DNA of 20,756 bases from a virus, in IMG/VR virus record IMGVR_UViG_3300009788_000347, positions 1 through 20,756 of that record. The stretch is one strand, 5' to 3'. The stretch's first letter is position 1. Each line of letters begins with the position of its first letter. Positions 1,953 to 18,005 of this stretch are shown here, piece by piece. A program made the translations under genes and the position numbers. The notes under the pieces were generated by a model that searched no databases, was not told where the DNA came from, and was given only the letters and a program-made list of their open reading frames with translations.

Positions 1953-3938
1953 CTAAGGCAGTTCGTCGATGCGAACGCTGATACCGGGCCAGTTGCCCGA
2001 CACGAAAGCGCGTCCGACCAGTGTCGCCGGGTCCGGCAGGGCACCCGAGATCCCGCCCGTCTGTGCCGCCGAAACGGCAATCGCCCATGCGAGCCCCGAG
2101 CTGTTCCCGTCGTACACGAAGTTCCCCGCGTCCTCCGTGGTCGCCACACCCGCCTTGTGGGCCGCCGCGCACGACTGGTCGCCGGCAGCGCCGTCGACCT
2201 CTCCGTCTTCCGTGTACCCTCCCGGAACGCCGAGTAGCACATCATCGGACGTGCCCGGTGCAGCAACCGCGATCAACAGCGTCTCCGTCGGCCCCCACGA
2301 GGGGGTAATCGCCGGCGGGTTGAAGCGTTCACCGAACGGCTGCGTGGCGTCTTGCTCGACCACCACAGCTTCGGGGTCTTCCGTCAGGTGCGACCCATCG
2401 ATCAGGTACGCCACTGACGCACTGGTCCTGTTGAGAGACGAAACGAACAACACGGACCCACCGCCGGCCTCGCTGGCCGAGATTCGCCGGAACACGACCA
2501 CGCCGTCCGTGACCGTGCTGGTGGCCCCCGCGTCAAGCACGAGGGTCCAACCGCCCGGAGGCGTGATAGCGGAGTTCGCCCGCACGTTGAAGTTGATGAC
2601 CAGTATCTGGCCGTCCACCCGCGCCTGTGGGGGCAGTTCCACCGTGTGCTGTGTGTCCGTCGTCTGGTTACTGAACTTCGTGCCCACGACGCTCGCACCG
2701 ATACCCGCACGCAGCATGAAGTCCGCCTGCGTCGCGCCCGGGAGAGCGTCCTGTGGACTTTCCCACCCGAGGTGCGCCCCGATGCTCTCACCGGCGCCGC
2801 TCACGCCCTCCAGCTGGAAGGTCCCGCCGCCGCTCACGTCGTACTGTGCAATCGCCATCCAGTAGAGGACGTTCGGCAGCAGCGTGATCGGGCTCTCGAA
2901 CGTGGCCGTGTAGTCAGCCTTGGCGGAGCCGTTGAACACCATGTCAGCGGTCTGCCCCATGAGGGCACCCGGAAAGGCGTTCGCGGCCTGCGCCTGATAG
3001 ATCCCGACGCGGGCGTTCTGCTCCCCGGTCGAAGCGGTACGGAGCCCGAAGGAGCACTGATCGAGCACGACCTTGCGGTACACCGCGACCGGCCTGTAGT
3101 AGACGTTCCCCGCTGCGAGGTTGACCGCGCCACCGGACATCTCGGCGTCGATCTCTCCGAGCCGAGCCCACCGCCCCACGAGCATGGGCGTCGACCACTG
3201 CATGGTGGCGAGCACGTCCTCGCCCGGGCTGGGCATCTGATATATCTCGAAGTGGTCGCTGGCCGCTCGGATGAGGTTGGACGACGCCGGGGCCTTCACG
3301 GCACCATACCGGCGAAGTCTGACCTCGTAGTAGTCCCCTGCAAGGGCGCTGTCGATCACCGCGACCCGCAGCGTCTCGTCCACGTTCTTCTTACTGTCCG
3401 AGCCGTTCGTGGTCCGGGGCGTCCGCATGGTCGCCATCGGTGTGCCGGCGGCGTTCTTGTGGAGGGTCAGCTCCCACCCGAACTTGTCGTCGTTCCCATC
3501 GAGGTTGCCCCTGTGCGTCGGGACCGTGATCTGCGCGGAGATGTTGTATCCGCCCTTCTTCGGGACCGTCACACGTTCGGCGGTCGCGGAGTCGTAGAAC
3601 GCGGTGTCGCTGCTCACGTCGAACTGCGCCGTGGTCGGCCAGTCGAGTGCGGAGGCTGTGGTCGACGATGTGATGGTCACGGGGGGTCCCAGCCGTGCAT
3701 AGTGGGGCTCCGCCCGGGCACCTTCCAGATTGGTGGTGCGCTGGTCCAAGTTCGTGATCGTGGCGATGACCGCGTCCAGCTCGACCTGCACGAGGGCGAG
3801 GACGCCGTCGATCCCCAGGATGAGCGCGACCGTCTGCTCACCGATAGCCGTGTTCAACTCGGTGCCCCACGTATCCGTGGAGCCCGCGTCTAGCGGGAGG
3901 TCCCAGCCGTAATAGAGGGTCGGATCGATTGTGCCCAT
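1953..3938 (-). CDS. Multidomain tail fibre protein
   Basis: This 661-aa protein is built from visible modules. Residues 1-75 are the putative docking module shared with the gene at the left edge. Residues about 80-235 are a C1q/TNF-like beta-sandwich (PHYARLGPP, VTVPKKGGYNISAQITVP, YYEVRLRRYG). Residues about 280-365 are the YRP-type domain (YYRPVAVYRK, ARVGIYQAQA, LLPNVLYWMAIAQ) that is duplicated in the next gene. Residues about 430-630 are a further beta-rich domain (VDGQILVINF, TPPGGWTLVLDA, SVAYLIDG) of a kind common in phage minor structural proteins. The ATG at 3938 overlaps the end of the adaptor gene region by coupling (adaptor stop at 3940). Placement directly after the adaptor gene supports a tail role. 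Trimerisation and receptor are not visible from sequence. Confidence 0.82.
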   Translation of the reverse strand: MGTIDPTLYYGWDLPLDAGSTDTWGTELNTAIGEQTVALILGIDGVLALVQVELDAVIATITNLDQRTTNLEGARAEPHYARLGPPVTITSSTTASALDWPTTAQFDVSSDTAFYDSATAERVTVPKKGGYNISAQITVPTHRGNLDGNDDKFGWELTLHKNAAGTPMATMRTPRTTNGSDSKKNVDETLRVAVIDSALAGDYYEVRLRRYGAVKAPASSNLIRAASDHFEIYQMPSPGEDVLATMQWSTPMLVGRWARLGEIDAEMSGGAVNLAAGNVYYRPVAVYRKVVLDQCSFGLRTASTGEQNARVGIYQAQAANAFPGALMGQTADMVFNGSAKADYTATFESPITLLPNVLYWMAIAQYDVSGGGTFQLEGVSGAGESIGAHLGWESPQDALPGATQADFMLRAGIGASVVGTKFSNQTTDTQHTVELPPQARVDGQILVINFNVRANSAITPPGGWTLVLDAGATSTVTDGVVVFRRISASEAGGGSVLFVSSLNRTSASVAYLIDGSHLTEDPEAVVVEQDATQPFGERFNPPAITPSWGPTETLLIAVAAPGTSDDVLLGVPGGYTEDGEVDGAAGDQSCAAAHKAGVATTEDAGNFVYDGNSSGLAWAIAVSAAQTGGISGALPDPATLVGRAFVSGNWPGISVRIDELP

Positions 3939-3939
3939 G

Positions 3940-4584
3940 CTAGAACACCAGCCGTGGTTCGTCGGTCATTTCGCCACTGAAGGTCAGCCGCTGCGTCGCA
4001 GCGTCCAACTCGTTCAGACTCTCATCCAGCATACCCTTCCACACCTGAATCCGGCTGTCGTCCTTCAGGAACGGGGCGCTCTCCACCAGCGTCGCGTAGA
4101 CGTAGATGTCGGCGTTCTCGTTCAGGAACCGGCTGGTCGGGCTCGTGGCCGACAACTGTGCGAGTCGCGTCCAGTACTGCATCTGGAGCGCATACTCCGC
4201 GTCCGGGATGGGGGCCACCTGAAGGAACACAGCCCCCGAGTCACCCTTGATCGCGCACGCCACGGGCACACCCGTCGTGATCGAGTGGAGCGCCTTGTAC
4301 TTCTGTAGGCCGCCGAGGTCCGTGAGCACCAGTGGCCCGAAGTAGTTCGGACCCTGGTGCGCCACCGAGTACAGCGAGTCGATCTCACTCGGGAGGGCTG
4401 TCACCTCCGACGAGACTGAGAATGGACTCAGGTCCGCTAGGAGTTTCGCCCTCGTGTCCCTCCGCAGCTTCAGCTCCGCCCTCTGGATCCACGCCGGCAC
4501 CGCCGCCACTGTCGCTGCGTCCGACCGGTTTAGGATCTCCAGCACCTCCGTCTGGAGGGTCGCGTACGTCGTCACTAGCGGCAT
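3940..4584 (-). CDS. Head-tail adaptor protein (SU10/P22 gp4-like)
   Basis: This 214-aa protein has the hallmarks of the phage adaptor family that binds under the portal ring and connects it to the tail. The N-terminus has a short helix (TYATLQTEVLEILNRSD) followed by VPAWIQRAELKLRRDTRAK, the typical 'I..AE..L.RD.R' signature, then a beta part beginning with LPSEIDSLYSV. The C-terminal half contains YALQMQYWTRLAQLS and a helical NADIYVYATLVESAPFLKDD segment, also typical. The start is an ATG with AAGGA eight bases upstream. Unusually, the first 200 nt overlap the 3' end of the glycosyltransferase gene in another frame; the conserved family signature lies in the adaptor frame, so this gene is the constrained one there. 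Assignment rests on remembered family pattern, not on a search. Confidence 0.82.
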   Translation of the reverse strand: MPLVTTYATLQTEVLEILNRSDAATVAAVPAWIQRAELKLRRDTRAKLLADLSPFSVSSEVTALPSEIDSLYSVAHQGPNYFGPLVLTDLGGLQKYKALHSITTGVPVACAIKGDSGAVFLQVAPIPDAEYALQMQYWTRLAQLSATSPTSRFLNENADIYVYATLVESAPFLKDDSRIQVWKGMLDESLNELDAATQRLTFSGEMTDEPRLVF

Positions 4585-5359
4585 CTTCGACTTCCTTCAG
4601 TTGCTGTTGCAGCTTGTCCTGCGCCCACACATGCTCCAGCGAGAACTGCTCGTCCCCGAGGTGCTTGATCTGCTTCGACAGGTCATGGTCAACGTGGATC
4701 GGGACGCCGGCTTCTCTCACCAGCCGGCAGAAGTACACGTCCTCCCCGATCTGACTGTTGTGCTTCGGCATCCACTCGTACCACCACCACGGCTGTTCGC
4801 GGGGGTCCGGCAGCGCCTCGAACACGTCCCGGCGGATCAGCATGACACCGAAGCCGAGCGCGTCGCACTCTTCCACGCCGGTGGAGTCACGGGCCGTCGT
4901 CAGGAGCGTGCCCTTTTCCTCACTCTCCGGGTCCGCCACCTTCTCCACCCCGATGTATCGCACGGGGTACTTCCGGCTGACGTAGTTACAGCCGACCATG
5001 GGCAGGTTCCGGGCCAGGAGCCGCGCGAGCGTGTCCGGCGGGAACCGCATGTCGGAGTCGAGGAAGAGGACGTAGTCCATCTCCTGCTGCATGGCCGCCG
5101 CCGCCAGCGCCATCCGGGCCGTGTGGACGTAGGTACCGACCTGCATGGCCAGCGCCATGTTGTCGATCACGCCCGGCACCGAGTACCGCGTTGCGGTGTA
5201 GGCCATCATCTGCGCGAGGTCGTAGCAGAAGTACGCCTTCACGTCCGACTGGCAGGGGACGGCCACCACGACGTTGATCCCGCGCTGGGCAACCTCGTCG
5301 GCCTGCTTCTCCATCTTCTTCATCTCGCGCTCTTGGCGCCTACGCATCTGTCGATTCAC
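4385..5359 (-). CDS. GT-A (GT2-like) glycosyltransferase
   Basis: Product is about 324 aa from a GTG at 5359. I chose it because GGAG lies seven bases upstream and the previous gene stops at 5377; the frame is open up to 5431. The GT-A fold is recognisable: INVVVAVPCQSDV opens the Rossmann part, MDYVLFLDSDMRFPP holds the metal/nucleotide-sugar DXD (residues about 101-103), MVGCNYVSRKYP follows, and ECDALGFGVMLIRRDVF, then IGEDVYFCRLVREAGV (ED candidate base) and KHLG complete the set. The basic, charged N-terminus has no membrane segment, so it is predicted cytoplasmic. It would transfer a sugar from a nucleotide sugar to an unknown acceptor: virion protein, host surface glycan or DNA. The C-terminal ~66 residues are low-complexity Gly/Asp/Glu/Pro-rich and overlap the adaptor gene, so they look like an overprinted extension and not part of the catalytic domain. 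Confidence 0.82.
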   Translation of the reverse strand: MNRQMRRRQEREMKKMEKQADEVAQRGINVVVAVPCQSDVKAYFCYDLAQMMAYTATRYSVPGVIDNMALAMQVGTYVHTARMALAAAAMQQEMDYVLFLDSDMRFPPDTLARLLARNLPMVGCNYVSRKYPVRYIGVEKVADPESEEKGTLLTTARDSTGVEECDALGFGVMLIRRDVFEALPDPREQPWWWYEWMPKHNSQIGEDVYFCRLVREAGVPIHVDHDLSKQIKHLGDEQFSLEHVWAQDKLQQQLKEVEDAASDDVRDPPDGGAGDPKPVGRSDSGGGAGVDPEGGAEAAEGHEGETPSGPESILSLVGGDSPPE

Positions 5360-5376
5360 AGGTCTTCTCCACAGGC

Positions 5377-5700
5377 TTAGATTCTCCCGGGTCTCGTGCG
5401 CCATGCACTGTTGTCCGGGTCGTTGAGCCACGCCGTAAACGCGACCCCGTCCGGGTCCTTCTTCTCGTCAATGATCCCCTGCTTGACGAGACTCCAGTAG
5501 ATCGACGTGGGGATGCGAGCGACGTGGTTCTGGAACTCGTTCCAGCGCCCGCCCCGCTCATTGAAGTTCATCTTGTTGTTGCGGAGTACGTCCGTCACGT
5601 TCTGCTGCGAGTGGATCGTAACGTCTCCGTCACCGTGCTGGAGGTGCATCCGCTTGATCGCCTGCTCCGGTGTCTCGTTCAGCTTCCTCGCTATGCTCAC
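5377..5700 (-). CDS. Conserved phage protein of unknown function
   Basis: This 107-aa protein starts at a GTG that overlaps the stop of the previous gene (GTGA), with GGAG eight bases upstream. It is soluble and mixed in composition. I recall the C-terminal pattern LNDPDN..WRTRPGRI and the central HVARIP segment from small proteins found in late operons of many podovirus-like phages, where they are generally annotated as hypothetical. A QNVTDVLRNNKMNFNE stretch near residues 33-48 also belongs to that pattern. No catalytic motif is apparent. Position between the spanin-like gene and the glycosyltransferase gene gives no clear hint; a virion assembly or internal role is possible but is only a guess. 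Confidence 0.72.
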   Translation of the reverse strand: MSIARKLNETPEQAIKRMHLQHGDGDVTIHSQQNVTDVLRNNKMNFNERGGRWNEFQNHVARIPTSIYWSLVKQGIIDEKKDPDGVAFTAWLNDPDNSAWRTRPGRI

Positions 5701-6257
5701 AGACTAAGCTCCCACGAGAGGTTGACTGCCACCGGGCCCACGCAGGGTTTACCCCCGGCGCACAGGCCAGCGAATGGTCCGATTCCCAGCCTGGGGATCC
5801 ACCAGGGCGATTTCCCCGGCCGGTCCTCAAGCACCGTGTGTAGACTGTCGCCCCGCGACAGCGCAAGCCCTAGCGCCTCACGGGTCAGGTCGTGGCTTCG
5901 GCTCTCCGTCTGGTACGCTATTTTCCATCGGTTGCTCTGCTCCACCACCTCGGTAATCACCGAGTCGCGTAGCACCTCTCCAGGCGTCACCGCCGGGGGG
6001 AGGTTCACGATCCGCTCGATGATGACAGGTTCCCGGGCCTCGGCTTCCTCCGCGCTGGCTACGGCCTGTGAGCGCAGCACTTCCGCTTCGGCCTGCAAGT
6101 CGACGACCCGGGACCGTAGTTGATCCGAGTCGGCCAGCGCCACCTGCACGCGGGCCTCCCACTCGTTGGCGTTGGAAGTGTAGCAGTGCCCAACCCCGAG
6201 AACGAGGCCGAGCACAGCCACCCCTACCAGCACCATATTCAGGCTGGGCTTCTTCAC
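5697..6257 (-). CDS. Spanin-like (Rz-type) membrane-anchored protein
   Basis: This 186-aa protein starts at a GTG that shares its first G with the upstream TAG (TAGTG). Residues 7-24 form a single hydrophobic membrane segment after a KK start, with the rest predicted periplasmic. Residues about 30-80 are Glu/Ala/Leu/Arg-rich and likely coiled-coil. The C-terminus (PRLGIGPFAGLCAGG, then KPCVGPVAVNLSWEL) is a short beta-like stretch with two cysteines. A membrane anchor plus long coiled coil is the layout of i-spanins, which fuse inner and outer membranes at lysis of Gram-negative hosts. Cys25 follows VGH, which is not a good lipobox, so I prefer a membrane anchor to a lipoprotein. No overlapping o-spanin and no endolysin are seen nearby, so the lysis role is moderate-confidence inference. 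Confidence 0.6.
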   Translation of the reverse strand: MKKPSLNMVLVGVAVLGLVLGVGHCYTSNANEWEARVQVALADSDQLRSRVVDLQAEAEVLRSQAVASAEEAEAREPVIIERIVNLPPAVTPGEVLRDSVITEVVEQSNRWKIAYQTESRSHDLTREALGLALSRGDSLHTVLEDRPGKSPWWIPRLGIGPFAGLCAGGKPCVGPVAVNLSWELSL

Positions 6258-6457
6258 TACGCTGCGACCGTACCGGTCAGGATCCCGGCTGCGATCAGGT
6301 CACGAATGACGGTTCCGAGCAAGTCGGAAAGCTCGTCGTTCGAGGCGCTGTTGCAGTCGATGTCCACGTCCTCGGTGAAGTTGGTGAGCGCGTAAACCGT
6401 GCTCCCCGACACCTCGTGATTCGGCAGATCGGTCCGCAGTCTCTTAGGGACTGGCAT
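6257..6457 (-). CDS. Small hypothetical phage protein
   Basis: This 66-aa protein has an excellent ribosome site (AGGAGG five bases before the ATG). The 3' end of the sulfotransferase gene overlaps its start by 14 nt. The sequence is soluble: a Pro/Lys-rich start, a short beta-like part (STVYALTNFTEDVDIDC) and a C-terminal helix (ELSDLLGTVIRDLIAAGIL). I recall similar small proteins with a 'helical L..LI.DL...G' ending in phage structural operons, without known function. No motif supports an enzymatic role. Confidence 0.65.
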   Translation of the reverse strand: MPVPKRLRTDLPNHEVSGSTVYALTNFTEDVDIDCNSASNDELSDLLGTVIRDLIAAGILTGTVAA

Positions 6458-7031
6458 GGTTCCTCCTGTTTTGGTACGAGTAGCCGTACCGCTTGATTTC
6501 GTCTTTCCAGCGGGCGGCCACGTACTCGCGGGTCGCCTCGTCGTAAAACTCGGAGTAGTGCTTCTTCTTCGTCGCTCGCCTCGCAGCCCCGAGGTTCACT
6601 TTGGGGAGCGTGACTGGCTGTTGGAGCACTGACCCCAGGTCCCGTTCTATGTGCTCGAACCGCATGATCCGATCCGCGAAGGTGTCATGTAGAGCCCACA
6701 GTCGATCGGGTTCGGGGTAGTACTGCACGTACCTCCCCAAGAACAGCTCGATCCACTCGGGTCCGAATGGGAGCCCCTTCGGTCCGTGGAAGTAGTACCA
6801 CGAGACCCAGGTGTCCCAATGGTTCCGTACTGTCGTGAAGACCCGCCAGCCATCACCCGGGTGTGTCAACAGGCCCTGGTGATGGCCCTGCGGGGTCTCT
6901 CCGGCCTCCACTGGATTTCCGTCGGGCGTCGGCTGGTAGAAGCCGAGCCCCTTCAGCAGCTGCCGCGTCGCCTTGCTCGCGGTCTTGGGATGGGCGAGGT
7001 AGATCAAGCCCCTCTCTTGTGAGATGAGCAC
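6444..7031 (-). CDS. Sulfotransferase family protein (PAPS-dependent)
   Basis: This 195-aa protein starts at a GTG with AAGGAG nine bases upstream; that ribosome site includes the stop of the preceding gene. Two family signatures are visible. The 5'-phosphosulfate binding loop is at residues 10-26 (IYLAHPKTASKATRQLL, with H14-P-K16-T17). The 3'-phosphate binding motif is at 66-81 (TTVRNHWDTWVSWYYF, with R69 and S77). H50/H51 in the region between them are candidates for the catalytic base. These fit the sulfotransferase family, which moves sulfate from PAPS to a hydroxyl or amine of a sugar or other acceptor. The protein is short but seems complete, with no membrane segment. The gene lies inside the virion structural operon, so the acceptor may be a virion glycan or a host surface sugar. 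The acceptor is unknown. Confidence 0.8.
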   Translation of the reverse strand: MLISQERGLIYLAHPKTASKATRQLLKGLGFYQPTPDGNPVEAGETPQGHHQGLLTHPGDGWRVFTTVRNHWDTWVSWYYFHGPKGLPFGPEWIELFLGRYVQYYPEPDRLWALHDTFADRIMRFEHIERDLGSVLQQPVTLPKVNLGAARRATKKKHYSEFYDEATREYVAARWKDEIKRYGYSYQNRRNHASP

Positions 7032-7044
7032 GACCCGTCTCTCC

Positions 7045-7560
7045 TTAGTCCGAGGAACGCGAGGTGAGGTGCGCGATCATCATGATCGCCTCACTGTTGA
7101 GCTGCACCTCGTCCATCAGGCTGTTCAGAGCGTCTTCGAGCACGCCCGTTCCGGCCGTCGAGAAGAGGGTAGCCGTGTCACCGACTTCCTCGAAGTCGAT
7201 GTCGGTCTCCGAAGACAACAGGTAGATCCCGTTGCCGGCAGTCCCCGGGACCCTCGCGGTGAGGGTGATGAGCGAGGCGGCGGTCGTGACCACTGCGCTC
7301 ATGTTCGGGTTCTGCAAGGTTCCCGTGTCGTAGTACGTGGTTGCTCCCGGCGTACCCGATCGATTGATCGCCAACACCAGATTCGCGAGCGAACCAGTGT
7401 CGTCGGCCGTGCCCCCGCCCACATCCACATCATACGCCGAAGCCGGCGTGGCGATGAGGGTGTAGACAATGGCCCCGATCGTGAAAGCATCGGTCGCAAC
7501 AGGCGAAGCGTCGAACTGAAGCTGCGCCGTGGCACGCACCAGTGTCTGTGGTGCCATCAT
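7045..7560 (-). CDS. Beta-rich virion-associated protein
   Basis: This 171-aa protein starts at ATG 7560 (or the next ATG) with GGGAG nine bases upstream of the first. Residues about 10-120 show a repetitive beta pattern: ATAQLQFDASP, AFTIGAIVYTLIA, SLANLVLAINRSG, then TLTARVPGTAGNGIYLLSS. This pattern ('G..YT......LANLAAAIN...T.TA...G..GN') recurs in phage head and tail structural proteins. The C-terminal 40 residues (VLEDALNSLMDEVQLNSEAI) are helical. It sits directly downstream of the major capsid gene, behind a strong hairpin, so it is probably a low-copy or modulated structural protein such as a capsid decoration or head fibre. That specific role is inference. Confidence 0.68.
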   Translation of the reverse strand: MMAPQTLVRATAQLQFDASPVATDAFTIGAIVYTLIATPASAYDVDVGGGTADDTGSLANLVLAINRSGTPGATTYYDTGTLQNPNMSAVVTTAASLITLTARVPGTAGNGIYLLSSETDIDFEEVGDTATLFSTAGTGVLEDALNSLMDEVQLNSEAIMMIAHLTSRSSD

Positions 7561-7632: not shown

Positions 7633-8604
7633 TTACGACGTGTTCAGATCCGCCGCGAGACCGAGAGCGGCCTCGTTCTTGACCTTCAACGTCCACTCAG
7701 CGATGAGCATACGCTTCTCAGCGTCACCCGTCTTCGCCAGCTTGACGGTCTGGAACGGACGCAGGAACAGCACTTCGAGGAACTCGAAGTCCAAGAACCA
7801 TGCGTCTCTCTCCCTCTGGTACCGCGAAGGGATCACCTTCAGGGTGCCGAAGTCGGAGACGTACACGTCGATCGCAGCGATCACGGCCGAAGGGCTCGGA
7901 TCGACGTTCGACATGTCGAAGTTCCGCGTGACCACGCCCGAGAAGTTGGACACGGCCTGCTTGTTGAACGGGCCGACGAAGAGCGAACGAAGATTCGCCC
8001 CGCCGGTCCACATCAGGGACACCACGGCCTTCAGGATGGTCTCCGTGAAGGCACGCTGGGTGCCATCGCCACGGGCGTCATTCGGGACGCCACTGGTCCA
8101 CGTCGGGCTCGTCCCGCCCGCGCCGACCGAGTCGTGCGACTTGACGGTCGCACCGAGGGACGCGATCTCTCGCGCCGTGGTGCTGTCGCCGGCCACGCCG
8201 ATCTGGTTCTGGAAGATGATGGCTTCGAGATCCCGTCGCAGCTCCAGGCCACGCCGAGGAATCTGATACGCCATCTCCGAGCGCCTACCAGCCTTGTCCA
8301 GCACTTCCTCGGTGTCCGAGATGAGGAAGACTTTCCTGCTGATCTGCGTGATGTTTCCAACACGCACGCTCGCCGTGATCGCGCTGTACGAGGTGACATC
8401 GTCACCTTCGAGCTGCGCGTTGGAGGTGTCGGCCGAAGCGAGGACATCCGTCTGCCACTCTTCGGTCGTCTGCTTCGCGCTCCCTCTGCCAGCTGCGCTC
8501 AGGAACGGGGTCTCTTCGGGCGACACATCGTAGATGATGTCGGCAAGAGACTCACGCAACCCGGCCGCGTCGTAGCGGAGGAAGGTGTTTGCAACGATAG
8601 CCAT
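7633..8604 (-). CDS. Major capsid protein (DUF5309 / SU10-type, HK97 fold)
   Basis: This 323-aa protein has the N-terminal signature of the SU10-type capsid family: NTFLRYDAAGLRESLADIIY, then SPEETPFLSAAGRG, then TEEWQTDVLA and NAQLEGDDV. The middle has VGNITQISRKVFLISDTEE and a helical RRGLELRRDLEAIIFQNQ, the spine-helix region. The C-terminal half carries FGTLKVIPSRYQRERDAWFL and AEWTLKVKNEAALGLAADL, typical of the P-domain end of this family. Its length matches the family (about 300-340 aa). There is no N-terminal delta domain, in keeping with a separate scaffold gene directly upstream. The ATG at 8604 has an AGGGAGC ribosome site. This is one of the firmest calls in the window. Confidence 0.9.
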   Translation of the reverse strand: MAIVANTFLRYDAAGLRESLADIIYDVSPEETPFLSAAGRGSAKQTTEEWQTDVLASADTSNAQLEGDDVTSYSAITASVRVGNITQISRKVFLISDTEEVLDKAGRRSEMAYQIPRRGLELRRDLEAIIFQNQIGVAGDSTTAREIASLGATVKSHDSVGAGGTSPTWTSGVPNDARGDGTQRAFTETILKAVVSLMWTGGANLRSLFVGPFNKQAVSNFSGVVTRNFDMSNVDPSPSAVIAAIDVYVSDFGTLKVIPSRYQRERDAWFLDFEFLEVLFLRPFQTVKLAKTGDAEKRMLIAEWTLKVKNEAALGLAADLNTS

Positions 8605-8631: not shown

Positions 8632-9759
8632 CTAGGCGTCGTCGCCCAGCATGTCGAACAGAAGTGACTCAGCGTCGTTCACCGAGCCCGTCTCGGAAAG
8701 CCGCTGGCGAGCCGCGACTGCCTTCCGGCGTCCAGACTTGATACGCCGGCGTCTGGTTCCGGGCTTGAGCGCAGCCACGGGCGGTTTCTTGCCCTTGCGG
8801 ATCTTGCGACCCTTCGACTGCATCTCACTCAGGAGCATGGAGTCACGAATCAGGACCACCGCACGGTGATCGAGAAGCCCCTCCATCTCTTCCACGGAGA
8901 ATCCGATCTTGAGGGCATGGGCGTAGAGCCTCTTCTGCTCACTGGCCATGACCTCGGCACCCTTCTCAGGGTCGGACCACTCCGGGATCGCCTCCAGCAT
9001 CAGCTGCTGCTGCTCGCCCTTGAAGGTCTCAAGCTGCTGCGTTTGGTCAGCGACGTTCTCGTCGTCGACTCGCTTCTGCTCGGCCCGTAGCCCCTCCAGC
9101 TGTCGTACGTGGCGGGTCCACTTGGCGGATTCAGCAACGAACCGGGCGGGATCTTCCTTCTCCAGGGTGTCCCAATCCGGCTCTTGCGGATACGATTCAA
9201 CGAGCGCCTGCTCCACCTGCTTGAGGCGCTGCCCGTATACCTCACGACTCTCGCGCACAGTCGCAGCCTCGGCGTCGACCTCTTTTCGGGCCTTTGCCAG
9301 TTCCTGCGACTTCTGCGTATTGTGAGCCCGGAAGGAGTAGCCGTTGGTCAGCTCATCCATCGTGACCTCGTGTTCCTTGCCGTCCACCAGTACGGTGTAT
9401 GTCTCGGCAGTTTCCTCGGGGTCCTCGATGACGTTCCCATCCTCGTCGACGTACTCGTACTCGAACTCGTCTTCGAGGGGCTGTTCTTCCTCTCCGGTCT
9501 CTTCTCCGAGCGGGGGGTCGCCGTCTTCGACGATCTCTTCCACCGGCTCGTCTTCGCTGGGACTTGGAGCCTTGTCCACAACGGGTGGGTCGCTTTCCTC
9601 TTCTACCGGACCGGCGGCCGTCATCTTCCGGCCGTCCAGATCCGCTTCTGAGAGCAACCCTAGCAGCTTGGCCTCTGCCGTGTTCACGTCACCGCCGGCG
9701 GCGAAGAGATGCCTCTCCAACGGTGCTTCTTGTCCCTTATCCTCTGGTGCGTCTGCCAC
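8632..9759 (-). CDS. Scaffolding protein
   Basis: This 375-aa protein lies between portal and capsid genes, the usual place for a scaffold. Residues 50-118 are strongly acidic and low in complexity. Next comes TYTVLVDGKEHEVTMDEL (about 120-137), followed by NGYSFRAHNTQKSQELAKA; this DUF-like block is common in scaffolds of podo- and siphoviruses. Residues about 150-275 are Glu/Gln/Lys/Arg-rich helix, likely coiled coil. The C-terminal 60 residues are very basic (KIRKGKKPP, RRRRIKSGRRK), matching the capsid-binding basic tail of P22-type scaffolds. It would assemble with the capsid protein inside the procapsid and then exit. No protease domain is seen, so exit without self-cleavage is likely. 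Confidence 0.85.
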   Translation of the reverse strand: MADAPEDKGQEAPLERHLFAAGGDVNTAEAKLLGLLSEADLDGRKMTAAGPVEEESDPPVVDKAPSPSEDEPVEEIVEDGDPPLGEETGEEEQPLEDEFEYEYVDEDGNVIEDPEETAETYTVLVDGKEHEVTMDELTNGYSFRAHNTQKSQELAKARKEVDAEAATVRESREVYGQRLKQVEQALVESYPQEPDWDTLEKEDPARFVAESAKWTRHVRQLEGLRAEQKRVDDENVADQTQQLETFKGEQQQLMLEAIPEWSDPEKGAEVMASEQKRLYAHALKIGFSVEEMEGLLDHRAVVLIRDSMLLSEMQSKGRKIRKGKKPPVAALKPGTRRRRIKSGRRKAVAARQRLSETGSVNDAESLLFDMLGDDA

Positions 9760-10056: not shown

Positions 10057-12285
10057 CTATTCCGTGGGTGTCCGTGCAGCCGCCGCAGCAGCCGCCTCGC
10101 GTTTGTTCTGCTGGTCCATCAGGAGCTTCGCCGCGCTCACGCCGGCGTCCTGCTCCGCTCTGTCGCTCTTGACTGCCGCATCGAGAACCGACGTAGCGAG
10201 AGCACCCTGCTCCCGGTTGGCCTCGTTGCGGACGCGCTCCGAGTCGACCGCGAAGGTGCGGGCGATCTTGTCGCGCTCTCTGTCGTCCTTGAGAAGCATG
10301 TCCTGGGTCTTCAGCTCGATCTCGGCCTGGGCCTTCTCACCGTCCTGCTTGACCCGCTGCGCCTCGATCATGACCAACTGTTCCTCCGGGGAGGGCTGCT
10401 GGCCGGCCTGGGCCTGCTCTTGCTCGAACGCCTGCTGTTGCTCCGGCCCCCAAATGGTGAAGAACTCGTCGCCGGTCGGGAACCCGGCCAGCTCGACGAT
10501 CTTCTCCAGCGTGGTGCGGATGCCCTGCCAGGACACGAGAGGCGAGGCCAGCCCCATCAGCTCCTGCTGCTTCGCGAGCACGAGGCCGAGGATCTGAAGC
10601 TTGTCCTCGACGAGGCCAGTCCCGAGCGCCACGTTGACGCGCACGTCCATCGTGGCGTCCCACTTGTCCGGGTCCACCGAGATGTAATCGCCCCGGAGGC
10701 GGACGATCCGCCTGCGAGTCTCGTCCTTGTGGACCACGAGCAGCCGGAGGATGCCTTTGTACAGCTCGGCCACGCCCGTCTCCGCGAAGATGCGGGCGAT
10801 CATCTCCAACTGCTGCTGAGAGCCCGTGACGCTGGCCTGGACGGCCGCCTTCGTCGTGGACTGGAGGACGGAGGGGTCGAGCCCCTGCGACGCCTTAGAG
10901 CGCCCTGTGCGGTCTTCCTTGACCGAGTCGAGGTAGCGCAGCATCTCCAACGCCTCGCCACCCACCCAACGGTGGGGCACCTCTCGCATCATGTTCGGTC
11001 GCTTGGCCCGCACGATGCGGGACAGCTTCCGGGACATAACGTCCTTCATGTTCACTTCCGACGCCACGACTTCCGTCACGGGGTCGATCGCGGTGGCCAG
11101 CGAATCGAGGCTGGCCCGCGCGACGAAGGACTGGATCCTCTGGAGATCCATCGTGATGTCGGACATCGAGCTGCCGACGATCGTGTGGGGCTCCGGTTCG
11201 GGGCTCAGGAACGCGAACGGGATCTCGTCCACCAGCTCGCCCTCACCGTCGCCGTTGGCGATGATGTAGTCGGTGCCGATGCACTGATAGAAGCGCAGCT
11301 CCGCGATGTCGTCGCCGTCCACGTCGATTCGCGCATACAGCTCCGCGAACTGCGTCAACTCGGCGGCGTCGTCACGTACGGACTGCGTGGGAGAGTTTCC
11401 CCCGTCGACCCGGCGTGCAGCTCGCACCTCAGAGGTCAGGGCGTTCTCCATCGCCTCGCCGGCGTGCTCTTCGACCAAGTCCCGGTCGAGGCCCATGGCG
11501 ATCAGCTCGTCGGCCGGCACGTCCCGGATGTGCCCGATCAGCATGGCGTCGTGCTTGCTCCGCGCGTCCGGGCTCCAGATCATCTCTTCGGCCGGGATGG
11601 CGGCGAACCGCACCTTGCCCTCGGCGCTCATGAACCGCGCCTCTAGGTCGAACACCTCCTGCTGGTTGCCGTTGAGGCCCGCCTCTTCCGTCATGAGTAC
11701 GATGTCGGTGACGCCGATCTCGCTCTCCAGCACCGCCGAAAAGGCGCCGATCTCAGCGAGGGTCAGGGACTGGAACTTCTGCACCTGGGGCTTCTGGTTC
11801 CGCTCGAACCACCACTTCATGATCCCGAGCCGACGGACCAGAGCGTCCTTGAACCAGCTGTGGAACTCCAAGAAGCCGTCGTTGTCCTCGCGGATGACGA
11901 GGTTGACGAAGTCGGTCTGCTGCTTCGCCAAGTCCACGTCCTCTTCCTGCCGGCCGATGAACTCCACGACCCGCTCGGGGCCGAAGAACACGCGCAGCAG
12001 GGAGGGCATGGTCGCGCGGATGGCGTCCCGGACCACGGTGAGGACGATCTGTGACCGGCCCTCTACCTCGTTCCCGAACGGCTCGCCCTTGTAGTACTTG
12101 GTCGCCTCCGCGAGGAAGGGGTCCAGATTTTCCTCACGCCAGTGGCGGGCCTCTTCAGCCATCTCTTGGAGCTTGTTCCGCACGTCCTCGTTCTCGGGGT
12201 CTATAGACTCCGAGACGGTGGTCGGGCTTTCTTCCTGCTCCAGAATCGCCTGCTCGTCAGCGACGTAGTATTCTCGTCCGTCCAC
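10057..12285 (-). CDS. Portal protein (P22-like)
   Basis: This 742-aa protein starts at a GTG whose first G is the last base of the TerL stop (TAGTG), so its translation is coupled to TerL. After an acidic leader it has the P22-type start of helices (HWREENLDPFLAEATKYYKG), then GRSQIVLTVVRDAIRATMPS and LLRVFFGPERVVEF (residues about 76-110). Further on are a long central stem/clip region and a conserved MSDITMDLQRIQSFVARASL stretch. The C-terminal 130 residues (from about 605) are Gln/Glu/Lys/Ala-rich helix, matching the long barrel domain of P22-like portals. Length is typical. It forms the dodecameric DNA channel at one capsid vertex, binding TerL during packaging and the adaptor afterwards. 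The adaptor gene is present at 3940-4584. Confidence 0.9.
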   Translation of the reverse strand: MDGREYYVADEQAILEQEESPTTVSESIDPENEDVRNKLQEMAEEARHWREENLDPFLAEATKYYKGEPFGNEVEGRSQIVLTVVRDAIRATMPSLLRVFFGPERVVEFIGRQEEDVDLAKQQTDFVNLVIREDNDGFLEFHSWFKDALVRRLGIMKWWFERNQKPQVQKFQSLTLAEIGAFSAVLESEIGVTDIVLMTEEAGLNGNQQEVFDLEARFMSAEGKVRFAAIPAEEMIWSPDARSKHDAMLIGHIRDVPADELIAMGLDRDLVEEHAGEAMENALTSEVRAARRVDGGNSPTQSVRDDAAELTQFAELYARIDVDGDDIAELRFYQCIGTDYIIANGDGEGELVDEIPFAFLSPEPEPHTIVGSSMSDITMDLQRIQSFVARASLDSLATAIDPVTEVVASEVNMKDVMSRKLSRIVRAKRPNMMREVPHRWVGGEALEMLRYLDSVKEDRTGRSKASQGLDPSVLQSTTKAAVQASVTGSQQQLEMIARIFAETGVAELYKGILRLLVVHKDETRRRIVRLRGDYISVDPDKWDATMDVRVNVALGTGLVEDKLQILGLVLAKQQELMGLASPLVSWQGIRTTLEKIVELAGFPTGDEFFTIWGPEQQQAFEQEQAQAGQQPSPEEQLVMIEAQRVKQDGEKAQAEIELKTQDMLLKDDRERDKIARTFAVDSERVRNEANREQGALATSVLDAAVKSDRAEQDAGVSAAKLLMDQQNKREAAAAAAARTPTE

Positions 12286-13760
12286 TAGGGAACCCCCATC
12301 GATCGGTCAGGTAGCTCTTCGTTCCACGCGGACCCGCTGAAGCCCGTGCCATGTCCCATGAGCACGGCCACGTCCTCCGCGAAGGTCAGCATGAAGGCGT
12401 CCGCGAGATCGGGCGAAGCGACGCCCCGCTTCCGCATCTCGTCCTTACTCTCAACCTTGATCTTCCCGCTCGACTGATAGCTGTACGTCGGCTTCACCAG
12501 CTCCGACACGGTGATCTCGACCGGGCAGTGCTCTTTGCGACTGAAGGGCGGGAACTTCACGTCCTTGCCCTCGAACCACTCCCGGACCCTCCACCACAGC
12601 TCGTCGCGGAGTCGCATGAACCTATCGTCGATATTCGCGCTCTCACCGACGTTTATTCCACGCACGGGGAGCCCCAGCTCGATCAGCCGGTCCACCACGC
12701 CACCGCCCAGCCCGTTCACGTCGATCAGAATGGTCTCGGGCCGCTCCGACGGCATCGTCGCGTCCCACTTGCGCTTGATCCTCCCGGCCGTCTGCATCAG
12801 GTCGACACCTTCCCAGGTCTCGATGCTGACCAGCTCGCGCTTCGTGCGGACGGCCAGTGCGTTCCTGGCGGAGCCAAAGCGGGCCACGTCCACGCCCCAC
12901 ACGCAGGGGGCGCCGGGCACCGTCTTGATGTCGCGCGTCCTAGACGCCTCGACCAGCTCGAACGGGACGACGGTGTTCTCGTCGCCCTTCGGAAACTCCC
13001 CCAGGACCCGGATGCGGTAGGCATTTGACTCTTCGCCGTACCGCAGGGCGATGTCCTCGACGAAGTCGGGGATCACCCTGTCGCTCGGAATCCCGCTCGG
13101 CCAGTCCACGCTGGCGGCCCGGATGTGGTACGTCTTCCAGTTGTCCGCCATCTTGTTGAACACGTCGAAGAACAGCCCCGAGGTCCGCACCGGGTTCCCC
13201 AGCAAGATCGTCGTAGCGTTCTCACCTGACATGGAACCTGAGCCGGCCTCGAAGATCGGCTCCGGGATACCCGATGCCTCGTCCGCGATGATGAGGACGT
13301 GGTCGCTGTGGATCCCCTGGAGGGCTTCCGGCATCTCGGGCCGGGCGCTCCGGGCGCTGAAGAAGGACTCCGCCGGGCTCCCCAGCAGCTCGATACGGTC
13401 GCTCTTGAAGTTGAAGAGCGCGTTCAGCTGCGGCGGAAGCCGTTTGCCCCAGGACAGGATCTCCGTGAAGAGGGAGTCGAACAACTGCCCCTTCGTGGGG
13501 GCCGTGGCGACGGTCTTCTGCGGGAACCTCGTTAGCAACATGCACCAGACCATCCATGCCACGACGCAGGTTTTCCCGGGACCATGAGCGGACCGAATGG
13601 CGATACGCCGTTCGCCCCGCCCAAAGTCCTGCAGCACGTCACCCTGCCACTCATCTGGATCGGCCTTGAACACCTCCTTGACGAGGTTCACCGGGCCCAT
13701 GGCTCCCATGGGGGGACCGTAGCGTCCGATGAAGTCAAGCAGAATCTGGTGTGGCAGCAC
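12285..13760 (-). CDS. terL: Terminase large subunit (packaging ATPase/nuclease)
   Basis: This 491-aa protein carries both terminase activities. ATPase: Walker A at residues 57-64 (SAHGPGKT), Walker B HVLIIADEAS with D160-E161, and a coupling motif around LLGNPVRTSG (187-195). The adenine-side WQ (39-40) precedes them. Nuclease (RNase H fold): GVDVARFG with D291, ILIDVNGLGGG with D347, and DLADAFML with D451/D454, the expected metal-binding acidic residues. Start is GTG at 13760, placed directly after the stop of the fibre gene; the ribosome site is weak, so the true start could be the internal Met at about residue 18. It drives DNA into the procapsid through the portal. TerS lies about 5 kb upstream in the operon and not adjacent, as discussed in findings. 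Confidence 0.94.
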   Translation of the reverse strand: MLPHQILLDFIGRYGPPMGAMGPVNLVKEVFKADPDEWQGDVLQDFGRGERRIAIRSAHGPGKTCVVAWMVWCMLLTRFPQKTVATAPTKGQLFDSLFTEILSWGKRLPPQLNALFNFKSDRIELLGSPAESFFSARSARPEMPEALQGIHSDHVLIIADEASGIPEPIFEAGSGSMSGENATTILLGNPVRTSGLFFDVFNKMADNWKTYHIRAASVDWPSGIPSDRVIPDFVEDIALRYGEESNAYRIRVLGEFPKGDENTVVPFELVEASRTRDIKTVPGAPCVWGVDVARFGSARNALAVRTKRELVSIETWEGVDLMQTAGRIKRKWDATMPSERPETILIDVNGLGGGVVDRLIELGLPVRGINVGESANIDDRFMRLRDELWWRVREWFEGKDVKFPPFSRKEHCPVEITVSELVKPTYSYQSSGKIKVESKDEMRKRGVASPDLADAFMLTFAEDVAVLMGHGTGFSGSAWNEELPDRSMGVP

Positions 13761-16655: not shown

Positions 16656-17222
16656 CTAAAGGTCGATTTGCCGGCCGTGCATCGTCCCCTCGAAGTGGTC
16701 GAGGGTCGAAAGGTTGTCTCGGACCAGGGTCTGGACGTATTGGCCCGGCGTCAGGAAGATCCCGTAGCCGATCGAGCGCGTCATCTCCCAGCGAACGGTC
16801 AGCTGGTCGACGGTGGCGCCCTGCCACACGATGCTCGTGTTCATCGCCCCGAGGTGCGCCCACATGATGTTGTGGGTCACGGGAGCGAACGAGGCGATCT
16901 CGGTGTCGTCGCTCTCGTGGACGCTGATGACTACGCCGTTCGCGAGCTGCGCGAGACTCCCGAAGAGCTGCGGCTCGATGCCCGGGTCCGCGACGTGCCA
17001 CTCGCCCATGGACAGGATGATGACCTTGTCCGCCGGGCAGATGACCTTGAACTCCGCCGGGGTCGTCCCGTCGATGGCCATGTCGTTCGTGACGCCTGCC
17101 CCGTCCAGCGAGAACTCCTGTACGAAGATTTCGCTAGGCGGGATGAGCTGCGGCGCCGTGAACCGGTCGTCCGTCGGGGTCCGCAGGTGCTGGCTCAGAT
17201 TCCGGTTGGTGAGCCAGCTCAT
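16656..17222 (-). CDS. Phage structural-type protein of unknown function
   Basis: This 188-aa soluble protein begins at an ATG overlapping the stop of the previous small gene (ATGA), with an AGAGG ribosome site. It has a beta-rich pattern (NDMAIDGTTPAEFKVICPA, DKVIILSMGEWHVADPGI, FGSLAQLANGVVISVHES) and ends with DHFEGTMHGRQI. I recall proteins with 'NMAVDGST..eF......D..I......D......FG....L.NGi.i' from environmental podovirus-like phages, where they are annotated as hypothetical or virion proteins. No catalytic motif is seen. Function is unknown; its position among small coupled genes does not settle it. Confidence 0.65.
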   Translation of the reverse strand: MSWLTNRNLSQHLRTPTDDRFTAPQLIPPSEIFVQEFSLDGAGVTNDMAIDGTTPAEFKVICPADKVIILSMGEWHVADPGIEPQLFGSLAQLANGVVISVHESDDTEIASFAPVTHNIMWAHLGAMNTSIVWQGATVDQLTVRWEMTRSIGYGIFLTPGQYVQTLVRDNLSTLDHFEGTMHGRQIDL

Positions 17223-17323
17223 GAGCGGAACCTCTTCCAGAGGCGCCGCCCGCTCTTACGTAGCGGCGCCCACCGCGCCTGAAGCACGAGAAGGAAGATC
17301 AGGCCCAACAGGACTTCGGTCAT
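17219..17323 (-). CDS. Tiny membrane protein (34 aa)
   Basis: A 34-aa frame starts at ATG 17323 overlapping the stop of the gene before it (ATGA) and ends overlapping the ATG of the gene after it (ATGA). Coupling on both sides is the main evidence that it is translated. It starts with a hydrophobic segment (VLLGLIFLLVLQA) followed by a strongly basic tail (RKSGRRLWKRFRS). That positive-inside layout suggests a single-pass inner membrane peptide, small enough to be a holin-like or membrane-modulating factor. No further assignment is possible. Confidence 0.5.
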   Translation of the reverse strand: MTEVLLGLIFLLVLQARWAPLRKSGRRLWKRFRS

Positions 17324-17616
17324 ATCTCCGAGTGCTCCACGATCCACTCCGGGCTCACGTCACCGAACTTCCGCTCGATGAAGTGGGCGATGAACAGCTG
17401 CTCGTGGCAGTCGATGGGAGGACTGAGGTCACGTTGCCCCAGGCGCACCCACCGCTGCCCCGTGAAAACCGGGATTCCCTTCTCCCGCTTCCCGCGAATC
17501 TCCAGCCCGGGGACCTTCCCCATGCCGACCTCGCGGGCCAGTTGCTCGTTCAGAGCGGCGAGGCTCATGCGCCGGTCTTCAGATAGCCCATCATTCCGAA
17601 CTTCATATAGCGTCAC
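17320..17616 (-). CDS. Small hypothetical protein next to tRNA-Tyr
   Basis: This frame encodes 98 aa from GTG 17616, only eight bases past the tRNA-Tyr 3' end. No ribosome site is visible there, so translation more likely starts at the internal ATG at 17568 (82 aa, weak GAAG eight bases upstream). The product is soluble with the segments RGKREKGIPVFTGQRWVRLG and HEQLFIAHFIERKFGDVSPE. I do not recognise it. The stop overlaps the ATG of the next membrane peptide gene. If the tRNA is cut from a common transcript, the resulting mRNA would have a very short leader. Confidence 0.55.
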   Translation of the reverse strand: MTLYEVRNDGLSEDRRMSLAALNEQLAREVGMGKVPGLEIRGKREKGIPVFTGQRWVRLGQRDLSPPIDCHEQLFIAHFIERKFGDVSPEWIVEHSEI

Positions 17617-17624
17617 CTATTGAG

Positions 17625-17707
17625 TGGAGCGGGGAGGGGTCGAACCTCCACAGCGCCCAGGCGTCCGGGTTACAGCCGGATGGGCTCACCAAGTGCCCAG
17701 CCGCTCC
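17625..17707 (-). tRNA. tRNA-Tyr (anticodon GTA)
   Basis: A class II cloverleaf folds on the minus strand. The acceptor is GGAGCGG with CCGCTCC plus A, and the D-stem is GGGC/GCCC. The anticodon arm is TCCGG-CTGTAAC-CCGGA (anticodon GTA). The variable arm is long, as expected for bacterial tRNA-Tyr, and the T-arm is GGAGG-TTCGACC-CCTCC. The CCA end is not encoded. It starts four bases after a 34-nt hairpin in the transcript. Confidence 0.9.
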
Positions 17708-17849
17708 ATGTCCCAGCGGTATCCCCGTTGGGGGACCGCCGGGAGTCGAGTGAGCGCCCTGCCTGCACCTTCTAGGGAGGAAGGGACCCTCACCGTGGTA
17801 CGCCGGAGTGGTATCTCCGTTTGGAGTGGTATCCCCGGCGTGGGGGTAA
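17708..17849 (-). ncRNA. Structured spacer between tRNA-Ile and tRNA-Tyr
   Basis: This 142-nt stretch has no convincing reading frame and holds three hairpins. One is at 17800-17841: a perfect 7-bp outer stem (ACGCCGG/CCGGCGT) around a near-symmetric internal loop and a CTCC/GGAG stem. One is at 17768-17784 (CCTTC/GAAGG with a seven-base loop). One is an imperfect palindrome at 17711-17744 of about 14 pairs. The word GGTATCCCCG occurs at 17718 and 17829, and the variant GGTATCTCCG at 17811. It may be a processed RNA or a decayed tRNA; the identity is unknown. Confidence 0.35.
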
Positions 17850-17923
17850 TTCGGGCGGGAGGATTTGAACCTCCGACTGCCCGCGTATCAGGCGGGATCT
17901 CTACCGGACTGAGTTACACCCGA
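17850..17923 (-). tRNA. tRNA-Ile (anticodon GAT)
   Basis: A cloverleaf folds on the minus strand. The acceptor is TCGGGTG with CGCCCGA (one G-T pair) plus A. The D-arm has CTC/GAG pairs and the expected GG in the loop. The anticodon arm is CCCGC-CTGATAC-GCGGG (anticodon GAT), and the T-arm is GGAGG-TTCAAAT-CCTCC. CCA is not encoded. Its first base directly follows the last base of tRNA-Trp. Confidence 0.9.
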
Positions 17924-17993
17924 CAGGCCCATGAGGGATCGAACCCCACACAGCACGGTTTGGAGCCGCGCCCGCCACCCTGGCGTTGGACCT
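17924..17993 (-). tRNA. tRNA-Trp (anticodon CCA), atypical D-arm
   Basis: The acceptor is AGGTCCA with TGGGCCT plus discriminator G, which suits tRNA-Trp. The anticodon arm is CGCGG-CTCCAAA-CCGTG (anticodon CCA), and the T-arm is TGGGG-TTCGATC-CCTCA. At 70 nt it is three bases short of normal. The D-arm is reduced to a 4-bp stem with a 3-5 base loop (CGCC-AGGGT-GGCG) and an extra GG before the anticodon stem. No CCA is encoded. Confidence 0.75.
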
Positions 17994-18005
17994 AGATTTT
18001 GCCGC

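What the first reader, a model, noticed from the sequence alone, without database searches (positions are those of the whole stretch)
6444..7031. Phage-encoded sulfotransferase in the structural operon
Both PAPS-binding signatures (HPKTAS and VRN.WD..VSWY) are present in a short, apparently complete protein with a good ribosome site, sitting between a capsid-associated gene and a spanin-like gene. Sulfotransferases are uncommon in phages. One placed with late genes suggests sulfation of a virion-borne glycan or of host surface sugar late in infection.
Basis: partly seen in the sequence, partly recalled or inferred. Interest (0 to 1): 0.6.

Follow-up and report, generated by a model that had tools for sequence, protein, structure and literature searches.

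The report
Sulfotransferase gene inside phage capsid cassette
A short-tailed phage carries, wedged among its capsid and tail genes and next to a sugar-transferring enzyme, a gene for a sulfate-transferring enzyme that its near relatives have kept; it probably adds sulfate to a sugar on the phage particle, but what it really acts on is untested.

Summary
Window 6444-7031, minus strand, is an intact 195-codon gene (GTG start, AAGGAG 9 nt upstream overlapping the stop of the preceding gene). Its protein has the 5'-phosphosulfate loop (HPKTAS), the 3'-phosphate site (VRNHWDTWVSWY) and a family-invariant His between them. It matches no Pfam family alone, but a family profile finds sulfotransferases as its best PDB matches (best E 1e-4), the AlphaFold model (pLDDT 84.7) matches SULTs and phage sulfotransferases, and it aligns end to end (24%, 3e-12) with a phage protein that passes the Pfam Sulfotransfer_2 cut-off. 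The gene is under purifying selection and kept in five distinct lineages down to 62% capsid-protein identity, always with a glycosyltransferase (GT) gene in the same capsid-to-adaptor interval. The GT is a widespread part of this LUZ24/SU10-type cassette (67 of 78 sampled GT loci have it with capsid and adaptor genes; none of the 78 has this sulfotransferase). I read it as a clade-specific add-on that sulfates a sugar placed by the GT, most likely on a virion protein. Catalysis and substrate are inferred. Phage sulfotransferases are already known. New member of a known kind, in an informative context.

The parts
6444..7031 (-). Sulfotransferase (195 aa, GTG start): 5'-phosphosulfate loop residues 14-19, conserved His50/His51, 3'-phosphate site residues 68-79, C-terminal YGY motif
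7041..7046 (-). Ribosome-binding site AAGGAG, 9 nt before the GTG start, overlapping the stop codon of orf7045
   Evidence: read directly from the sequence; similar purine-rich sites before the starts in L003 and L010
4385..5431 (-). Glycosyltransferase-like protein, GT-A type (FLDSDMRF and GEDVYFCR motifs), soluble; likely functional partner
   Evidence: family found in at least 557 viral contigs, next to MCP and adaptor in most sampled
7633..8604 (-). Major capsid protein (SU10_MCP, PF17236)
   Evidence: E 2.2e-84
7045..7560 (-). orf7045, 171 aa, unknown, between MCP and sulfotransferase; possible head-associated protein
   Evidence: no family; syntenic in all sulfotransferase-bearing relatives of this cassette
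6257..6457 (-). 66-aa ORF overlapping the 3' end of the sulfotransferase gene
   Evidence: conserved 79-85% in L003 and L008
5697..6257 (-). Spanin-like protein: N-terminal membrane segment followed by a charged, coiled-coil-like region
   Evidence: hydropathy maximum 2.2 over 19 residues near the N-terminus; no family assignment
5377..5700 (-). phrog_3982 protein, a constant part of this cassette type
3940..4584 (-). Head-tail adaptor (SU10_adaptor, PF24175), downstream border of the cassette
   Evidence: E 1.1e-21

Best explanation
The gene encodes a compact soluble PAPS-dependent sulfotransferase, a divergent branch of the Sulfotransfer_2-like superfamily. It is translated with the head genes. 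PAPS made by the host binds between the 5' loop (K16-S19) and the 3' site (R69, S77); the conserved His51 (or His50) acts as general base, and sulfate is moved to a hydroxyl. The most likely acceptor is a sugar that the cassette's GT-A enzyme (4385-5431) attaches to a virion protein, so assembled particles would carry a sulfated, negatively charged glycan that could affect adsorption, stability or shielding. Shown by sequence and model: gene, motifs, fold, conservation, co-location with the GT. Inferred: catalysis, the GT-to-sulfotransferase order, the virion acceptor and the benefit.
For: Family profile (A3, 11 phage sequences) against PDB: 16 of 17 matches are sulfotransferases, best SULT4A1 E 1e-4, aligned on the 3'-phosphate site. 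Eight of 11 members match phrog_3347, Galactose-3-O-sulfotransferase. AlphaFold2 pLDDT 84.7, pTM 0.80; Foldseek best PDB match SULT1A3 E 8.8e-4, and BFVD matches include sulfotransferases of Ralstonia phage RSL1 and Prochlorococcus phage P-SSM7. End-to-end BLASTP match (24%, 3e-12) to L072, which passes the Pfam Sulfotransfer_2 cut-off (31.7 vs 22 bits); profile-profile probability 99%. H51, R69, D73 and others invariant, S77 nearly so. Purifying selection. The sulfotransferase and GT lie together between MCP and adaptor in all five distinct lineages, even where gene order changed (L011: directly adjacent). The GT is a regular member of this structural cassette: 67 of 78 GT loci have MCP, GT and adaptor. 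No case in this cassette type of the sulfotransferase without the GT. The GT model matches protein-glycosylating GT-A enzymes (collagen hydroxylysine galactosyltransferase; PBCV-1 capsid-glycosylating enzyme), at low model confidence. Other distant members sit beside a GT8-like protein, a TylF-type methyltransferase and a capsule-synthesis-type protein. No transmembrane segment in either enzyme.
Against: Substrate and activity are untested. The window protein by itself matches no Pfam or NCBIfam family. TM-scores are modest (0.45 to PDB). Co-occurrence with the GT rests on one clade, so shared descent could explain it. Several distant family members sit beside replication genes with no relative of this GT found nearby (L014, L015). 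GT model quality is low (pLDDT 59.8).
Confidence: 0.45

Rival explanations
1. It is an active sulfotransferase that sulfates a host glycan (surface polysaccharide or a lipid-linked precursor) in the infected cell, for example lowering re-adsorption of progeny to lysing cells and debris.
For: Distant relatives L067 and L072 lie in glycan-modification clusters with capsule-synthesis-type and methyltransferase genes. PHROGs classes phage sulfotransferases as moron/host takeover.
Against: No transmembrane segment in either enzyme; no polymerase, flippase or other surface-sugar genes seen in the cassette; the GT partner is constant within the capsid cassette of many phages.
Confidence: 0.25
2. It sulfates a protein side chain (for example tyrosine) of a virion protein, or a small molecule, independently of the glycosyltransferase.
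For: Family members occur without a nearby relative of this GT, beside DNA polymerase or RNA ligase genes (L014, L015), so the GT is not needed by the family as a whole. The best PDB matches are SULTs, which act mostly on small molecules (their substrates are own knowledge).
Against: In this cassette type it was never seen without the GT; the nearest named viral families are annotated as carbohydrate sulfotransferases.
Confidence: 0.2
3. Catalytically dead sulfotransferase fold reused as a structural or regulatory protein.
For: Small size; K16 of the 5' loop is R in several members; dN/dS of 0.41 against L008, higher than for MCP.
Against: Both PAPS-binding motifs and a His are kept in all members down to about 30% identity; the K-to-R change is conservative.
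Confidence: 0.07
4. It takes part in modifying phage DNA together with the glycosyltransferase.
For: A paper states that glycosyl- and sulfotransferase-based nucleotide modification has been reported in phages (PMC10829341).
Against: No DNA-modification gene next to it; the GT family tracks the capsid cassette.
Confidence: 0.03

Closest known systems
Phage sulfotransferase family phrog_3347 (Galactose-3-O-sulfotransferase) and Pfam Sulfotransfer_2 (PF03567)
   Same: Motif order, size about 200 aa, C-terminal YGY end; linked through L067 and L072, which pass the Pfam cut-off
   Different: The window protein matches phrog_3347 over residues 116-186 only (E 8.4e-5) and no Pfam model; HWD follows VRN where the bridge proteins have P(Y/W)D
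Cytosolic sulfotransferases (SULT1A3, SULT4A1; Sulfotransfer_1)
   Same: Fold class and both PAPS-binding sites; Foldseek E 8.8e-4, profile E 1e-4
   Different: About 100 residues shorter, about 11-17% identity; acceptor-binding parts not comparable
Sulfotransferases of isolated phages (Roseobacter phage SIO1 gp5.1, Prochlorococcus phage P-SSM7, Ralstonia phage RSL1)
   Same: Predicted fold
   Different: 14-20% identity; their genomic setting was not examined here
LUZ24/SU10-type head cassette with glycosyltransferase (Manatee Spring phages MW202711, MW202496, MW202462)
   Same: MCP - phrog_3982 - GT - adaptor order
   Different: No relative of this sulfotransferase found anywhere in those genomes; the window clade has orf7045, sulfotransferase, 66-aa ORF and spanin-like gene added

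Membership tests
PAPS-dependent sulfotransferase superfamily | 5'-phosphosulfate-binding strand-loop-helix with (K/R)-(T/S)-x-(S/T) | tested here: met
   HPKTAS; T17 and S19 invariant in 11 sequences, K16 is K or R; strand 9-12, loop, helix 20-28 in the model
PAPS-dependent sulfotransferase superfamily | 3'-phosphate-binding Arg and Ser eight residues apart at a strand-loop-helix | tested here: met
   R69 invariant, S77 nearly invariant; strand 63-68, helix 71-82; aligned to the same site of SULTs. The SULT1A1 spacing (R130, S138) is own knowledge
PAPS-dependent sulfotransferase superfamily | Catalytic base (His or Glu) between the two PAPS sites | tested here: inconclusive
   H51 invariant, H50 nearly so, in the right interval; role not tested
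PAPS-dependent sulfotransferase superfamily | Sulfotransferase fold | tested here: met
   Model pLDDT 84.7; best PDB matches and the named top BFVD matches are sulfotransferases; TM-scores modest
PAPS-dependent sulfotransferase superfamily | Transfer of sulfate from PAPS | not testable with these tools
   needs an enzyme assay
Pfam Sulfotransfer_2 (PF03567) | Score above curated cut-off | tested here: not met
   No match for the window protein; relatives L067 and L072 pass, so it is homologous but outside the family as curated
phrog_3347 | Significant profile match over most of the length | tested here: inconclusive
   E 8.4e-5 over residues 116-186 only; 8 of 11 members match, best 1.8e-7
Virion-glycan modification module | GT and sulfotransferase gene together in the capsid-to-adaptor interval across relatives | tested here: met
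   Five of five distinct lineages
Virion-glycan modification module | Sulfated glycan on a virion protein | not testable with these tools
   needs mass spectrometry of virions

The most novel reading that the evidence does not exclude
A two-enzyme phage module, GT plus sulfotransferase, built into the head cassette, coats virions with sulfated sugar: sulfated-glycan decoration of bacteriophage particles, for which I found no description in the papers searched.
Probability: 0.35. Interest if true: 0.75.

Novelty: new member of a known kind. Interest (0 to 1): 0.42.

Why it matters
Phage sulfotransferases are reported often, but their role is called unclear (PMC10580990). Here one is locked into the capsid cassette beside a glycosyltransferase whose family is widespread in phages of this type. 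That gives a concrete hypothesis about the acceptor (a virion-protein sugar), and natural comparison phages with the glycosyltransferase but without the sulfotransferase.

Tried and rejected
Single-sequence searches against Pfam, PDB and the isolate-phage collection gave no useful match; the best single-sequence PDB match (a ribosomal protein, E 0.49) is chance. No relative was found in 84,980 bacterial and archaeal genomes with two pattern scans; such scans reach only sequences that keep the chosen peptide, so a host origin is not excluded. Searching the records directly with phrog_3347 rang nowhere, the controls included, and so says nothing. NCBIfam matches of other members (YD repeat, ATPase) are chance. 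A nucleotide match to known phages was not found. DNA modification was considered and judged unlikely. Considered and rejected: that the gene is passing cargo, since it is kept in all close relatives found and is under purifying selection.

Full report
Setting. The window is a 20.8-kb viral contig. All head genes read on the minus strand: terminase (12285-13760), portal (10057-12285), scaffold (8632-9759), major capsid protein (7633-8604, SU10_MCP E 2.2e-84), orf7045, the gene in question, a 66-aa ORF, a spanin-like gene, a phrog_3982 gene, a glycosyltransferase-like gene and the adaptor (3940-4584, SU10_adaptor E 1.1e-21). Terminase, portal and scaffold are named from synteny with annotated relatives. 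No isolate phage is close: the best MCP match is 56% and the best terminase match about 47%. The layout is that of LUZ24/SU10-type short-tailed phages, such as Sinorhizobium phage phiM5, whose record notes LUZ24-like conservation and virion detection of the homologous head proteins.

The gene. 195 codons, GTG start, AAGGAG 9 nt upstream overlapping the upstream stop codon. A nearly identical contig (99.86% over 17 kb) carries it too, and L003 has it at 85% identity. Start codons differ (GTG, TTG, ATG) while the protein is kept. dN/dS is about 0.21 and 0.41 against L003 and L008; MCP gives about 0.16 and 0.20. So it is under purifying selection, though it evolves faster than the capsid.

What the protein is. 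Alone it hits only phrog_3347 (E 8.4e-5). An alignment of 11 phage relatives (A3) shows invariant T17, S19, H51, V68-D73 (VRNHWD), W78 and GY183-184, with S77 nearly invariant. That profile finds sulfotransferases as 16 of its 17 matches in the PDB (best 1e-4; the last is a weak chance hit). The model is confident (pLDDT 84.7, pTM 0.80), with strand-loop-helix units at both PAPS motifs; PDB neighbours are SULTs (8.8e-4), and named viral neighbours are sulfotransferases of phages and large viruses. A bridge exists: L072 encodes a 192-aa protein above the Pfam Sulfotransfer_2 cut-off, which aligns with the window protein from residue 1 to 186 (24%, 3e-12); profile to profile the probability is 99%. 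I treat sulfotransferase homology as established (about 0.95) and catalytic competence as likely.

Relatives and setting. Scans of IMG/VR found family members in five distinct lineages with the same cassette: window/L002, L003, L008/L009, L010, L011 (plus L058, cut by a contig end). Sulfotransferase identity falls 85, 62, 44, 37% as MCP identity falls 89, 87, 67, 62%, which fits vertical descent. In all of them the GT lies in the same MCP-to-adaptor interval; in L011 it directly follows the sulfotransferase. More distant MCP relatives (31-48%) with that interval complete have neither gene detected (whole-record profile search for the sulfotransferase). Three complete Manatee Spring phages have the GT but no relative of this sulfotransferase. 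A scan with the GT family matched at least 557 viral contigs; of 78 kept outside the sulfotransferase clade, 67 have MCP, GT and adaptor together and none has the sulfotransferase within the fetched DNA. So the GT is a widespread cassette gene and the sulfotransferase a clade-specific addition, seen in this cassette only where the GT is present. The sampling was by gene and the clade is one, so this is suggestive, not a test of dependence.

The GT. It has DSDMRF (a DxD metal site) and GEDVYFCR motifs, invariant in essentials in five sequences, and weak GT2/GT21 matches. Its model is poor overall (pLDDT 59.8, better in the core), but 274 PDB matches pass 0.001, led by collagen hydroxylysine galactosyltransferase and including the PBCV-1 enzyme that glycosylates its capsid. 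This points to GT-A, not to a specific acceptor.

Elsewhere in the family. Distant members occur in unrelated phages: near DNA polymerase or RNA ligase genes (L014, L015), near terminase (L016), sometimes as pairs (L061, L016), and in glycan-type clusters with TylF methyltransferase, GT8-like and capsule-synthesis-type genes (L067, L072). The family is thus not tied to capsids; in the window clade it sits among them.

Function. Both enzymes look soluble and would meet PAPS and nucleotide sugars in the cytoplasm, where virion proteins are also made. The simplest reading is a two-step decoration of a virion protein: sugar, then sulfate. Host-glycan sulfation is the main rival.

Literature. Phage sulfotransferases have been reported in marine phages and as auxiliary metabolic genes, with function described as unclear (PMC10580990; PMC8290583; PMC10829341). 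Searches for phage virion glycosylation returned papers that discuss it, for example in mycobacteriophages (titles and abstracts only); I found none on sulfated phage glycans in the papers searched, a limited library.

Verdict. Observation confirmed; identity supported; function plausible but inferred. A new member of a known kind in an informative context.

Noticed in passing
window 4385-5431 (-): The glycosyltransferase family is a frequent member of the LUZ24/SU10-type head cassette (MCP - phrog_3982 - GT - adaptor; 67 of 78 sampled GT loci have MCP, GT and adaptor), though PHROGs lists its best match (phrog_1574) as unknown. It may be a general virion-glycosylation gene.
   Followed up: partly
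L061:7372-8543; L049:2-1451; L047:8548-9669 with L012:2572-3192 (one contig): Some unrelated phages carry two copies of this sulfotransferase family, side by side in L061 and close together in L049.
   Followed up: partly
window about 100-722, 759-1940, 1953-3938 (-): Tail-side proteins share domains: two ORFs match phrog_25864, and the N-terminal part of the 661-aa protein has a 34% identical copy downstream, near the window edge (seen in L002).
   Followed up: no
window 17624-17994 (-): Three tRNA genes (Tyr, Ile, Trp); the Ile and Trp genes overlap by 2 bases. A tmRNA call (17043-17715) overlaps them and protein-coding ORFs and is probably spurious.
   Followed up: no
L067:7336-11147, L072:7303-10028: Sulfotransferase next to a TylF-type methyltransferase and, in L067, GT8-like and capsule-synthesis-type genes: a likely phage glycan-modification cluster.
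   Followed up: partly
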